Shown here one piece after another: positions 2,196 to 63,636 of a DNA stretch of 64,000 bases. Every line of letters begins with the position of its first letter. The first letter of the stretch is position 1. This stretch comes from Nevskiaceae bacterium (lineage in GTDB: Bacteria; Pseudomonadota; Gammaproteobacteria; Nevskiales; Nevskiaceae), in assembly GCA_008012115.1 (NCBI GenBank), contig SSEB01000011.1, positions 174,804 to 238,803 on the forward strand, given 5' to 3'. Position numbers and translations under genes: made by a program. Below the pieces are notes generated by a model. The model made no database searches and was not told the DNA's origin. It saw only the letters and a program-made list of their open reading frames with translations.

Positions 2196-2305
2196 CACCC
2201 GCTGATGCCGCAGGGTGTGATGATCTTGTTATATAAAATTATTCAAAAAATTTTCCTATCAATATTTTTTAACATCGTGCTGCAGTGATCTGCTCAGAGC
2301 GGGTG
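2196..2305. repeat. 110-bp AT-core element, copy 1
   Basis: Termini CACCCGCT and AGCGGGTG form an 8-bp inverted repeat. Each 32-bp outer arm is GC-rich. The 46-bp core, offset 33-78, starts GTTAT, ends AAC and is about 13% G+C. It lies between the divergent zinc-ribbon/pilS and sucCD units, 75 bp before sucC. No target-site duplication is visible. The AT-rich core could contain promoter-like hexamers for sucC, but that is speculation. Confidence 0.85.
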
Positions 2306-2380
2306 AGGCTTTTTTTGCCTATTGCCCTACCCTTCGACGACAATTCTGTTTTCCGAAGAACCGCAGCCTAGGGAGCCGGC

Positions 2381-3547
2381 ATGAACCTGCACGAATACCA
2401 AGCCAAAGAAATTTTCACGCGCTACGGGATTCCCGTGCCGCAGGGTGCGCTGGCCGCCAGCCCCGAGCAGGCGCGCGCCGCCGCCAAGCAGATCGGCGGC
2501 GACAAGTTCGTGGTCAAGGCCCAGGTGCATGCGGGCGGCCGCGGCAAGGCGGGTGGCGTCAAGCTGGTCGAGGGCTACGACGCCGTCGAGGAAGCCGCCA
2601 AGGGCATGCTCGGCCGCAAGCTGGTGACCATCCAGACCGGCGCCGGCGGCCTGCCGATCAACAGCGTGTGGGTGGAGAAGCCGTCCGCCATTGCGCGCGA
2701 GCTGTACGTTTCGGCCGTTGTCGACCGCACCAAGGAGCGCGTGGTGTTCATGGCTTCCGCCGCCGGCGGCATGGACATCGAGGAAGTCGCGCACAGCACG
2801 CCGGAGAAGATCAAGCACGTCGCCGTGCAGCCCGCCGCGGGCCTGCAGCCCTATCAGGCGCGCGAACTGGGCTTCTTCATGGACCTGACGAAGGAACAGG
2901 TCGACCAGTTCACCAAGATCATGCTGGGCCTCGCCAAGATGTTCACCGAGCTCGATTGCAGCCTGGTCGAGATCAATCCGCTGATCGTGACGAAGGAGGG
3001 CAATGTGATGGCGCTCGACGCCAAGCTCAACTTCGACGACAACGCGCTGTTCCGCCAGAAGGTGATCGCCGAGATGCGCGACACCTCGCAGGAGGATGAG
3101 CGCGAGCGCGAGGCCAGCAAGTTCGATCTCAACTACGTCACCCTCGAAGGCAACATCGGCTGCATGGTCAACGGCGCCGGCCTGGCGATGGCGACCATGG
3201 ACATCGTCAAGCTGCACGGCGGCCAGCCCGCCAACTTCCTCGACGTCGGCGGCGGCACCACGGCGGAGAAGGTGACCGAAGCGTTCAAGCTGATCACCCG
3301 CTCGCCGGAAGTGAAGGCCATCTTCATCAACATCTTCGGCGGCATCGTGCGTTGCGACCTGATCGCCGAAGGCATCATCCAGGCCTGCAAGCAGACCGGC
3401 CTCAAGATCCCGGTGGTCGCGCGCCTGCAGGGCACCAACATGGAAAAGGGTCGCGAACTGCTGCAGCAGAGCGGCCTCAAGATCACGCCCGTTTCCGACC
3501 TCACCGAGGCGGCCCAGACCGTCGTCGCCGCAGCCCAAGGAAAGTAA
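2381..3547 (+). CDS. sucC: succinyl-CoA synthetase (ADP-forming) beta subunit
   Basis: A 388-residue protein, standard family length. It starts MNLHEYQAKEIFTRYGIPVP, the typical SucC N-terminus, followed by an ATP-grasp nucleotide-binding domain (VKAQVHAGGRGKAGGVKLV) and the C-terminal ligase domain (NGAGLAMATMDIVKLHGG, LDVGGG, NIFGGIVRCDLIAEG). With SucD it makes the TCA-cycle enzyme converting succinyl-CoA to succinate with ATP formation in the cytoplasm. sucD follows after 4 bp, so the two are an operon. A GGGAG ribosome-binding site precedes the ATG. Confidence 0.98.
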   Translation: MNLHEYQAKEIFTRYGIPVPQGALAASPEQARAAAKQIGGDKFVVKAQVHAGGRGKAGGVKLVEGYDAVEEAAKGMLGRKLVTIQTGAGGLPINSVWVEKPSAIARELYVSAVVDRTKERVVFMASAAGGMDIEEVAHSTPEKIKHVAVQPAAGLQPYQARELGFFMDLTKEQVDQFTKIMLGLAKMFTELDCSLVEINPLIVTKEGNVMALDAKLNFDDNALFRQKVIAEMRDTSQEDEREREASKFDLNYVTLEGNIGCMVNGAGLAMATMDIVKLHGGQPANFLDVGGGTTAEKVTEAFKLITRSPEVKAIFINIFGGIVRCDLIAEGIIQACKQTGLKIPVVARLQGTNMEKGRELLQQSGLKITPVSDLTEAAQTVVAAAQGK

Positions 3548-3551
3548 GACC

Positions 3552-62077: not shown

Positions 62078-63476
62078 TCGCGGCGACGACGGCGTGGCGA
62101 CGGGAGTAGGTGAAATAGATCAGCAGGCCGACGACCATCCAGATCAGGAAGGCGATCCAGGTCAGCGACGGCAGGCTGGCCATCAGCCAGCCGCAGAACG
62201 CCATGCCCAGCACCGGCACCAGCGGCACCAGCGGAGTGCGGAAGGGACGCTTCATCTCGGGGCGCGTCTTGCGCAGCACGATGACGCTGGCGCAGACCAG
62301 GAAGAAGGCGCCCAGTGTGCCCAGGTTCACCAGCTCGGCGACCTTGCCGATGGGGAAGAAGCCGGCGATCAGTGCGATCAGCACGCCGCTGCCGAGGATC
62401 AGTTTCACCGGCGTCTGCGTCTTCGGATGGACCGCGGCCATCGGCGCCGGCAGCAGCCCGTCGCGCGACATCGCCAGCACCACGCGGGTGAGGCCGTAGT
62501 AGAGCACCAGCATCACCGTGGTGATGCCGAAAATCGCGCCGGTGGCGATCACGCCCTGGGCCCAGGGGATGCCGAGACTGCCCATGGCGGCGGCGACCGG
62601 CGCCTTGATGTCGATCTGCGCGTAGGGCACCACGCCGGTGAGGATGCCGGAGACGATGATGTACAGGATCGTGCAGATACCCAGCGACGCGAGAATGCCG
62701 ATGGGCAGGTCGCGCTGCGGTCTGATCGCCTCTTCGCCGGCGGTAGACACCGCGTCGAAGCCGATATAGGCGAAGAAGATCAGCGCCGCGGCGGTGGTGA
62801 TGCCCATGACACCGAAGTGAGCGTTGCCTTCGGCGTCGACCACGCGTTCCGGGATGAACGGATGCCAGTTGTCCGGATTCACATGCGGTCCGGCGATGGC
62901 GATGAAGATCAGGATGGTGGCGAGCTTGATCATCACCATGGCGCCGTTGAAGCGCGCCGATTCCTTCACGCCCCAGGACAGCAGGCCGGCCAGCGCCATC
63001 ACGATCAGCATCGCCGGCAGATTGCAGACGCCGCCTTCGGAGGGAGCCGAGGTCAGCGCATCCGGCATGGCGATGCCGAAGAACGAGGACAGGATCTTGG
63101 CGAAATAGCCGGACCAGCCGATGGCGACGGTGGAGGTGGCGACGCTGTATTCGAGAATCAGGTCCCAGCCGATGACCCACGCGATGATTTCGCCGATGCC
63201 GACGTAGGCGTAGCCGTAGGCGCTGCCGGCGCCGCCGACGGCGCTGGAGAGTTCCGCGTAGCACAGTGCGGCAAAGGCGCAGGCGGTGCCGGAGAGGATG
63301 AACGACAGCACGATGGCGGGGCCGGCGTGCTGGGCGGCGGCGACGCCGGTGAGCACGAAGATGCCGGTGCCGATGATGCAGCCGATGCCCAGCAGCGTCA
63401 GATCCCAGGCGGTCAGGCAGCGCTTGAGGCCGGTGTTGGCGTTGGGATCGATCGGCTTGGTGCGGAACAGGCTCAT
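62070..63476 (-). CDS. amino-acid permease (APC superfamily, cationic amino-acid transporter type)
   Basis: A 468-residue protein with 12 or more membrane segments. The APC start LTAWDLTLLGIGCIIGTGIF, followed by VLTG, the mid-segment FFAYIGFDAVSTAGEEA and a C-terminal span pair are typical of the CAT family. Substrate specificity is unknown. The stop overlaps the hemH start, so the two are co-transcribed, perhaps incidentally. Element copy 10 lies upstream. Confidence 0.9.
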   Translation of the reverse strand: MSLFRTKPIDPNANTGLKRCLTAWDLTLLGIGCIIGTGIFVLTGVAAAQHAGPAIVLSFILSGTACAFAALCYAELSSAVGGAGSAYGYAYVGIGEIIAWVIGWDLILEYSVATSTVAIGWSGYFAKILSSFFGIAMPDALTSAPSEGGVCNLPAMLIVMALAGLLSWGVKESARFNGAMVMIKLATILIFIAIAGPHVNPDNWHPFIPERVVDAEGNAHFGVMGITTAAALIFFAYIGFDAVSTAGEEAIRPQRDLPIGILASLGICTILYIIVSGILTGVVPYAQIDIKAPVAAAMGSLGIPWAQGVIATGAIFGITTVMLVLYYGLTRVVLAMSRDGLLPAPMAAVHPKTQTPVKLILGSGVLIALIAGFFPIGKVAELVNLGTLGAFFLVCASVIVLRKTRPEMKRPFRTPLVPLVPVLGMAFCGWLMASLPSLTWIAFLIWMVVGLLIYFTYSRRHAVVAANA

Positions 63477-63526
63477 TGGATTGCAGCTCCCCTGGCAAGG
63501 ATACGGCGAAGGACGGTTTTGACATG

Positions 63527-63636
63527 CACCCGCAATGCCAACTCCCGCCTATCGCGATGTTATCTATTATTCAATGATTTTTAAATCGATATGCAAAATA
63601 TAACAATCTCACCGGCTGCCGTGACGACAGCGGGTG
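63527..63636. repeat. 110-bp AT-core element, copy 10 (variant left terminus)
   Basis: Exactly 110 bp. The left terminus is CACCCGCA (one mismatch); the right is perfect. The core starts GTTATC and ends ATAAC; the dyad GATTT/AAATC is centred exactly on the midpoint. It lies between the thiolase gene and the permease gene, both on the minus strand. Confidence 0.85.

What the first reader, a model, noticed from the sequence alone, without database searches (positions are those of the whole stretch)
2196..63636. Ten copies of an undescribed element with fixed 110-bp architecture
Ten intergenic sites (2196, 8586, 15248, 22201, 25450, 33959, 40697, 46021, 54405, 63527) share 8-bp inverted termini CACCCGCT/AGCGGGTG, 32-bp GC-rich arms (termini included) and an exactly centred 46-bp AT-rich core with GTTAT/ATAAC edges. 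Nine are 110 bp and one 109 bp. Eight of ten copies have both termini perfect; two have one mismatch. Arm and core sequences are otherwise unrelated, so geometry and composition are conserved rather than sequence. That is unlike ordinary REP, ERIC or MITE families, whose copies align. It suggests a protein complex reading two distant GC boxes and a bendable or meltable centre.
Basis: seen in the sequence. Interest (0 to 1): 0.95.

Follow-up and report, generated by a model that had tools for sequence, protein, structure and literature searches.

The report
Evenly spaced DNA-wrapping chromosomal anchor sites
One bacterium's chromosome carries over 300 copies of a symmetric 110-letter DNA site, about one every 8,000 letters between genes, embedded in a 10.5-letter rhythm that likely lets about 230 letters wrap around a still unidentified protein complex.

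Summary
The genome (3.25 Mb; closest named relatives of one window protein are Nevskiales) holds 331 exact copies of CACCCGCT-N93..95-AGCGGGTG; the reversed-pattern control finds 0 and 57 other held family genomes hold 0 or 1. In a 1.13 Mb sample, 136 copies are 110 bp (131), 109 (4) or 111 (1), and 264 of 272 arms are exactly 32 bp. 134 of 142 AT-rich islands are intact elements. New here: GC content outside the element oscillates with a 10.5-bp period, phase-locked to its ends for about 60 bp on each side, in noncoding and coding DNA. This points to about 230 bp wrapped on a protein. Elements lie between genes, favour convergent and 3' ends, and are rarely close together (8 spacings under 3 kb against 26 expected). 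In a congener, AT cores lie at orthologous gaps (10 of 24 against 1 of 148). One arm of 43% of copies carries a box, so 'arms unrelated' is not quite right. No target-site duplication; no H-NS or archaeal-type histone gene found. Best reading: topological anchors; binder unknown. Gyrase is plausible, but the phage Mu site test did not support it. Insertion-target preference remains a rival.

The parts
2196..2305 (.). element 1, 110 bp, both termini perfect, just upstream of a succinyl-CoA-ligase-like gene (ATP-grasp_2, Ligase_CoA); the congener has a 45-bp AT core and a 7-of-8 right terminus (one base off the expected offset) at the orthologous gap
8586..8695 (.). element 2, 110 bp, both termini perfect; congener has an AT-rich core at the orthologous gap
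15248..15357 (.). element 3, 110 bp, both termini perfect
22201..22309 (.). element 4, 109 bp (core 45 bp, arms 32 bp), both termini perfect
25450..25559 (.). element 5, 110 bp, both termini perfect
33959..34068 (.). element 6, 110 bp, both termini perfect; box in right arm; congener has an AT-rich core at the orthologous gap
34039..34053 (-). one-sided arm box (TTTTCCCTGGGGAAATT type) of element 6
   Evidence: EM mixture
40697..40806 (.). element 7, 110 bp, right terminus one mismatch (GGCGGGTG), left arm 33 bp, core 45 bp
46021..46130 (.). element 8, 110 bp, both termini perfect, left edge GTGAT; congener keeps a core and a 7-of-8 left terminus (one base off the expected offset)
54405..54514 (.). 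element 9, 110 bp, both termini perfect; box in left arm; congener has an AT-rich island at the orthologous gap
54420..54434 (+). one-sided arm box of element 9
63527..63636 (.). element 10, 110 bp, left terminus one mismatch (CACCCGCA)

Best explanation
The ten copies belong to a genome-wide set of at least 331 two-fold symmetric 110-bp sites, on average about 8 kb apart and lying between genes, each of which likely anchors a dimeric protein complex around which roughly 230 bp of DNA is predicted to wrap, and which would serve as evenly spaced anchors of chromosome topology. Shown: the nearly invariant ends, arms of 32 bp (about three helical turns) in 264 of 272 cases, and a 45-47-bp AT-rich core with GTT..AAC edges; the 10.5-bp phased GC rhythm continuing about 60 bp beyond each end; placement between genes that favours convergent and gene-end positions; a deficit of short and of long spacings; shared orthologous positions with a congener. 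Inferred: a protein grips CACCCGCT at both ends and the core edges, the AT core bends or opens, and flanking DNA curls around the complex with its AT-rich minor grooves facing in. Inferred further: such pinned wraps absorb or restrain supercoils where transcription pushes them, which is why they lie at gene ends and keep their distance from each other. Untested: the identity of the protein and any effect on supercoiling, compaction or expression.
For: Exact geometry: 94 end pairs at 110 bp against at most 3 at any other spacing; 331 against control 0. Ends intact in nearly every AT-rich island, 134 of 142. Flanking GC minima near -7, -18, -28, -37, -51 and -61; amplitude at 10.5 bp 0.115 in -44..-3 and 0.043 in -88..-44, and 0.013-0.021 further out where noise is about 0.009. 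Amplitude 0.100 against random anchors in element-free gaps, mean 0.008, maximum 0.022 of 300 resamples. Same phase in noncoding and coding flanks. The element's own arms continue roughly the same AT/GC alternation. Congener flanks, noisy with 44 half-flanks, show dips at similar distances. Placement: 134 of 136 in gaps between called genes, the other 2 without a called gene on one side; 14 overlap a called gene end, none by more than 45 bp. Matched gaps of 50-200 bp hold an element in 18 of 38 convergent, 56 of 258 codirectional and 10 of 70 divergent cases (convergent against divergent p = 0.0004). Codirectional copies are nearer the upstream stop in 63 of 87, nearer the downstream start in 23, one tie. 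Spacings under 3 kb: 8 against 26.2 expected, 0 of 3000 class- and size-matched shuffles as low; over 16 kb: 5 against 11.0. Orthologous gaps: congener AT island at 10 of 24 element gaps against 1 of 148 others, p = 4e-9; restricted to gaps with at least 20 bp besides the element, 9 of 23 against 1 of 75, p = 4e-6.
Against: No binding protein is identified and none was tested. The flank rhythm in coding DNA is as strong at codon positions 1 and 2 (0.086, 0.078) as at position 3 (0.063), and the congener's orthologous second positions show it too (0.097), so at least part of it is where the elements sit rather than later tuning; insertion preference could explain that. The spread of spacings (CV 0.90) is not unusual when a 67-kb element-free island is included (25% of shuffles at or below it). 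Preference for gene ends could be mere avoidance of promoters. Excess within-copy pairing at positions 45-50/61-66 (z = 5) hints at a small hairpin, which a pure double-strand wrap does not need. 14 of 24 orthologous gaps in the congener have no AT island.
Confidence: 0.45

Rival explanations
1. Strong DNA-gyrase sites: gyrase sits on the dyad, cuts in the AT core and wraps the phased flanks on its GyrA C-terminal domains, relieving positive supercoils at gene ends.
For: E. coli gyrase sites show GC periodicity of 10.75 bp in 47-bp arms around a 36-bp centre (PMC6379681, passages). All gyrases of three species show 10-11-bp GC periodicity, said to lie within 120 bp of cleavage sites, with -4G/+8C and -2A/+6T preferences (PMC12324340, passages). 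In the element, taking the dyad as cut centre, position 50 (-4) is G in 53% and position 52 (-2) is A in 60%. Convergent and gene-end preference.
Against: The element profile does not fit the annotated phage Mu gyrase cut site: z from -1.6 to -0.4 at the exact dyad in four versions of the profile and -1.0 in a terminus-centred one; sliding the four up to 6 bp gives at best 0.7 to 2.6 (one site, low power). The +1G preference, which that paper links to quinolones, is not met (position 54 is T in 68%). Phasing runs to about 116 bp from the dyad, beyond the 66 bp of the E. coli motif. Base-specific 8-bp ends are not part of the gyrase motifs in the passages that I read.
Confidence: 0.2
2. A domesticated or old mobile repeat (MITE/ERIC-like) whose machinery inserted 110-bp units at bent or wrapped targets and spaced them by target immunity; the flank rhythm is the target preference.
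For: At loci where the congener lacks an AT island its gap is about as long as the own gap minus 110 bp (median difference +27.5, against +13 at non-element gaps). Flank rhythm at all codon positions and in the congener's second positions. Few spacings below 3 kb. Palindromic 110-bp intergenic unit. Copies with a core nearer the consensus also have higher box scores (rho 0.25, p = 0.004), as mixed ages could give.
Against: Target-site duplications of 2-10 bp are no commoner than in shuffled pairings. Apart from one tandem pair (C3:65967/67354) the most similar arm pairs share the box and little else, so recent copying is unlikely, yet ends are intact. Box scores of the two arms of one copy do not rise together (r = -0.15). 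Ten of 24 positions already carry an AT island in a congener about 75% identical in aligned DNA. The rhythm continues inside the arms. No exact match in the viral contigs.
Confidence: 0.2
3. A bidirectional transcription terminator or 3'-UTR RNA structure.
For: Lies close after stop codons (median 25 bp in codirectional gaps); excess within-copy pairing at 45-50/61-66, z = 5, 0 of 1000 permutations.
Against: No within-copy pairing excess in arms (z 0.1), core edges (0.1) or loop (-0.6). 18 divergent gaps hold an element. The rhythm extends into neighbouring coding DNA. In the window only 6S RNA reaches an Rfam gathering score.
Confidence: 0.07
4. A nucleation site for a known nucleoid protein such as H-NS or an archaeal-type histone.
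For: AT-rich core with TCGATAAAT resembling a recalled H-NS motif; 10.5-bp rhythm resembling nucleosomal DNA.
Against: No PF00816 match in own genome or congener, although 10 of 21 genomes searched have one; no PF00808 match in any of 21. The own genome is 94.8% complete, so absence is not absolute.
Confidence: 0.04

Closest known systems
Strong gyrase sites and the E. coli 130-bp gyrase motif (PMC6379681, passages)
   Same: Dyad-related GC rhythm of 10-11 bp, intergenic sites, link to gene ends
   Different: Here nearly invariant 8-bp ends, 46-bp AT core, over 300 near-identical geometries, phasing to about 116 bp from the dyad; the phage Mu gyrase site does not fit the profile
BIME/REP elements (gyrase-binding BIME-2; recalled, and passages of PMC6379681)
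   Same: Intergenic, mostly 3' of genes, dyad symmetry, proposed topological role
   Different: REP copies align as sequence (recalled); these conserve geometry and short anchors and occur as single units that are rarely close together
ERIC and other 100-130-bp palindromic intergenic repeats, MITEs (recalled)
   Same: Length, palindromy, intergenic location, several hundred copies
   Different: Arms mostly do not align, no target-site duplication, AT core shared with a congener at orthologous gaps, rhythm outside the unit
Positioned nucleosomes (recalled)
   Same: 10.5-bp AT/GC alternation of wrapped DNA
   Different: Bacterial, defined by nearly invariant ends, no archaeal-type histone gene found

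Membership tests
MITE / transposable repeat | target-site duplication | tested here: not met
   exact flank repeats of 2-10 bp occur as often as in shuffled pairings, 136 copies
MITE / transposable repeat | copies descend from one sequence and align along their length | tested here: not met
   24-bp arm inserts match a weak consensus at 11.1 of 24 on average; there is excess similarity (68 pairs with at least 18 of 24 identities against 1.4 in shuffles), and the top pairs share the box or belong to one tandem pair; the box is in 58 of 136 copies. The core does have a consensus
MITE / transposable repeat | presence/absence at otherwise intact sites | tested here: inconclusive
   gap lengths suggest unit gain or loss at 14 of 24 loci, but intergenic DNA is too diverged to see clean empty sites
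ERIC / other Rfam-catalogued elements | match to a covariance model | tested here: not met
   only 6S RNA reaches the gathering score in the window; I did not check which repeat families Rfam holds
REP/BIME | short alignable hairpin units, often paired (recalled) | tested here: not met
   no arm pairing excess within copies; 110-bp units
strong gyrase site | 10-11-bp GC rhythm in arms around a centre | tested here: met
   amplitude 0.100 against control maximum 0.022
strong gyrase site | arm phase as in a known strong site | tested here: not met
   phage Mu cut site scores below zero at the exact register (single site, low power)
strong gyrase site | gyrase cleavage or binding in the cell | not testable with these tools
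   needs Topo-Seq or ChIP
H-NS nucleation site | genome encodes an H-NS family protein | tested here: not met
   0 matches in own and congener; 10 of 21 genomes positive; own genome 94.8% complete
histone-bound DNA | genome encodes an archaeal-type histone fold protein | tested here: not met
   PF00808: 0 of 21; the control rings in 3 archaea

The most novel reading that the evidence does not exclude
A bacterial chromosome is organised by an evenly spaced array of some 330 positioned, nucleosome-like particles: each is written into DNA not by a repeated sequence but by geometry (two 8-bp grips 94 bp apart, 32-bp arms, a 46-bp AT hinge and phased flanks), so that about 230 bp wraps on an unknown, lineage-specific complex about every 8 kb and partitions the chromosome into topological units.
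Probability: 0.3. Interest if true: 0.96.

Novelty: categorically new. Interest (0 to 1): 0.86.

Why it matters
The E. coli chromosome is said to be divided into 400-500 supercoiled domains (abstract start of PMC3820752, seen in the listing), and to my knowledge no DNA element is known that sets such domains at regular intervals. A dispersed site defined by geometry, with helical phasing of flanking DNA even in coding sequence, would make that question directly testable: delete or add sites and measure supercoiling and contacts. It would also add a kind of positioned DNA-wrapping complex outside histones and gyrase. The listings of searches in a library of open papers showed nothing similar; that does not cover subscription journals.

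Tried and rejected
Hairpin/cruciform of the whole element: rejected, no within-copy pairing excess in arms or core edges; only the central 6-bp stem shows it. Transposition with duplicated target: not supported. 0 of 368 other genomes drawn from the class have the core-bearing pattern; 0 viral contigs. H-NS and archaeal-type histone as binder. Gyrase by comparison with the phage Mu site: not supported. Box as a general operator: outside elements 30 hits (12 noncoding, 18 coding) against 12 in reversed sequence, so little evidence of use elsewhere. A relation of box side to gene direction: none, 19 upstream against 16 downstream of 89. A first spacing test on 73 intervals gave CV 0.52 against a null minimum of 0.62 in 2000; with more contigs and a 67-kb element-free stretch the CV is ordinary, so only the deficit of short and long spacings is claimed. 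Congener termini: the terminus match near the expected offset is only weakly above other offsets (77 matches one base off the expected offset and 68 at it, against mean 60.7, sd 6.9; an unrelated offset also reaches 77), so I do not claim that the congener keeps the ends in general.

Dropped rows: of 223 candidate rows with up to 3 terminal mismatches only the 136 with at most 1 were kept; 80 of the others are 108-bp rows with 3 mismatches, which I took, without checking each, to be shifted readings of the same elements. Three congener islands mapping to spurious anchors at C5:509xx and six unmapped ones were left out of a '10 of 12' count; one search repeats the test without that choice.
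Full report
WHAT WAS CHECKED. All ten sites are in the window as stated. The window is the last 64 kb of contig C18 of a 3.25 Mb, 24-contig genome that is 94.8% complete. Named relatives among the closest matches of its argininosuccinate synthase are Hydrocarboniphaga, Sinimarinibacterium, Nevskia and Fontimonas; Hydrocarboniphaga is in Nevskiales. Genome-wide, 331 exact copies of CACCCGCT-N93..95-AGCGGGTG occur against 0 for the reversed pattern, and the 57 other held family genomes have 0 or 1; the two hits have middles that are not AT-rich. 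A looser pattern gives 350 here and 0-13 in 60 relatives, where its control gives 0-8. With the core edges required, 276 occur here and 0 in 368 other genomes drawn from the class.

ANATOMY. In 1,133,540 bp of this genome there are 136 copies with at most one terminal mismatch: 131 of 110 bp, 4 of 109, 1 of 111. Measured from the end to the GTT or GTG edge, 264 of 272 arms are 32 bp, two are 33, one is 31, and five have no such edge near. The core is 46 bp in 124 of the 110-bp copies and 45 bp in the four 109-bp copies. Because the ends were used to find the copies, their conservation was checked another way: of 142 AT-rich 46-bp islands, 134 overlap an element with at most one terminal mismatch. 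Among candidates with AT cores at exactly 110 bp in the first sample, 85 have no terminal mismatch, 9 have one, none has two or three, and 2 have four. The ends extend outward to CGC-CACCCGCT; 115 of 117 occurrences of that 11-mer in the sample are element ends. The core averages 87.5% AT; GTT starts 116 of 131 and AAC ends 119 of 131.

A HIDDEN ASYMMETRY. Arms are not wholly unrelated. A mixture model finds a near-palindromic box, TTTTCCCTGGGGAAATT, in 58 of 136 copies; of the 55 called with over 0.9 probability, 31 have it left, 22 right and 2 in both arms. By a simple match count 'both' is 2 against 5.5 expected (Fisher p = 0.06). Boxes are unevenly spread: 22 of 36 on C18, 10 of 32 on C1 (p = 0.017). 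Within copies, left and right halves pair more than chance only at positions 45-50 with 61-66 (z = 5.0, 131 copies), a 6-bp stem around a 10-base loop; arms give z = 0.1. A tandem pair of copies at C3:65967/67354, with nearly the same arms, differs in the core by changes that include a matched pair on the two sides. Template switching at imperfect palindromes is an ordinary explanation for this, as is a small cruciform.

THE FLANKS. Aligning 272 half-flanks, GC content falls to 0.44, 0.51, 0.54, 0.58, 0.58 and 0.54 at 7, 18, 28, 37, 51 and 61 bp outside the element and rises to 0.70-0.81 between them. The rhythm has a period of 10.5 bp; its amplitude is 0.115, then 0.043, and 0.013-0.021 beyond 88 bp, where noise is about 0.009. 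Random anchors in 359 element-free gaps give amplitude 0.008 (maximum 0.022 of 300 resamples) against 0.100 at elements. It has the same phase in noncoding and in coding flanks. Counting six turns each side, about 230 bp is phased around the dyad; this is the signature of DNA wrapped on a surface. That a protein does the wrapping is inference.

WHAT THE CODON POSITIONS SAY. In coding flanks the amplitude is 0.086, 0.078 and 0.063 at codon positions 1, 2 and 3. In the congener's orthologous codons it is 0.032, 0.097 and 0.009, each plus or minus about 0.03 (33 elements, 1,455 positions). Pure later tuning should show most at synonymous positions. So elements sit, at least partly, where the rhythm already was: by functional placement, or by insertion preference. 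This is the main result that keeps the mobile-element rival alive.

PLACEMENT AND SPACING. 134 of 136 lie in gaps between called genes (gene calls by my own codon model) and 2 lack a called gene on one side; 14 overlap a called gene end, none by more than 45 bp. Gaps matched for length (50-200 bp after removing the element) hold one in 18 of 38 convergent, 56 of 258 codirectional and 10 of 70 divergent cases (convergent against divergent p = 0.0004). Codirectional copies lie nearer the upstream stop in 63 of 87, with 23 nearer the downstream start and one tie. The mean spacing is 8.2 kb; 8 spacings are under 3 kb against 26.2 expected and 5 over 16 kb against 11.0 (90 spacings, 3000 shuffles). 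The overall CV is not unusual once a 67-kb element-free stretch on C5 is included.

HISTORY. The only congener held (G001, 55% GC, about 75% DNA identity where aligned) has none of the exact elements, but has AT cores of 44-46 bp with GT..AC edges, 22 in 792 kb. AT islands lie at orthologous gaps: 10 of 24 element gaps against 1 of 148 other gaps, p = 4e-9; with very short gaps left out, 9 of 23 against 1 of 75, p = 4e-6. The flanks of its cores keep TT at 15-16 bp from the core (57-64%) and, noisily, GC dips at similar distances. Two orthologous loci keep one terminus at 7 of 8, each one base off the expected offset. Stretches of eight other genomes of the family, 400 kb at 62-66% GC, have one AT island. 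So many positions are old and stable, and the ends either decayed in the congener or sharpened here.

MECHANISM. I favour a dimeric or larger complex gripping both ends and the core edges, bending or opening the AT hinge and wrapping the flanks, used as evenly spaced topological anchors. Gyrase is the best-known protein with such GC rhythm (PMC6379681 and PMC12324340, passages read; PMC12393610, passages). Two of its three cleavage-domain preferences match the dyad, but the annotated phage Mu gyrase site does not fit the element profile. H-NS and archaeal-type histones were not found.

LIMITS. No protein, no binding and no phenotype was tested. The own genome is a draft, only 35% of it was read base by base, and the congener and others were sampled. 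Names and features of REP, ERIC, MITE, the H-NS motif and nucleosomes are recalled, not tested beyond the rows in the membership table.

Noticed in passing
window 55625-55807 (-): 6S RNA (RF00013, 90 bits) lies about 1.1 kb from element 9, opposite an ORF (54493-56331 +) that overlaps element 9 and has no Pfam match, so that ORF may not be a real gene.
   Followed up: no
window 17305-17588: Two tandem copies (77% alike over 75 bp) of what reads like a Flp-type pilin segment, a few kb from a type II/IV secretion ATPase gene at 22307-23560; perhaps a tad-like pilus locus (pilin reading recalled).
   Followed up: no
G000 C5:47139-114234 and C3:18939-45941: Stretches of 67 and 27 kb without any element, with lower GC (0.607, 0.619) and low coding fraction (0.61, 0.72) under the host codon model; they look like acquired islands that lack the element.
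   Followed up: partly
G000 C1:154494: An AT-rich island that is not an element reads like a XerCD dif site (recalled), and GC skew on C1 changes sign between 120 and 180 kb, so this is probably near the replication terminus; elements continue on both sides.
   Followed up: partly
window 37608-37700: An intergenic sequence of which 36-92 bp match eight further places in the congener genome: probably a different, ordinary dispersed repeat.
   Followed up: no
G000 against G001: Two genomes placed in one genus differ by about 10 points of GC (0.655 against 0.550 in the samples), and the lower-GC genome has the weaker elements.
   Followed up: no
G000 C3:65967 and C3:67354: A recent tandem pair of elements with nearly the same arms (24 of 24 and 23 of 24 bases) but cores that differ by changes including a symmetric pair and one base of length; a natural record of how the core evolves.
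   Followed up: partly
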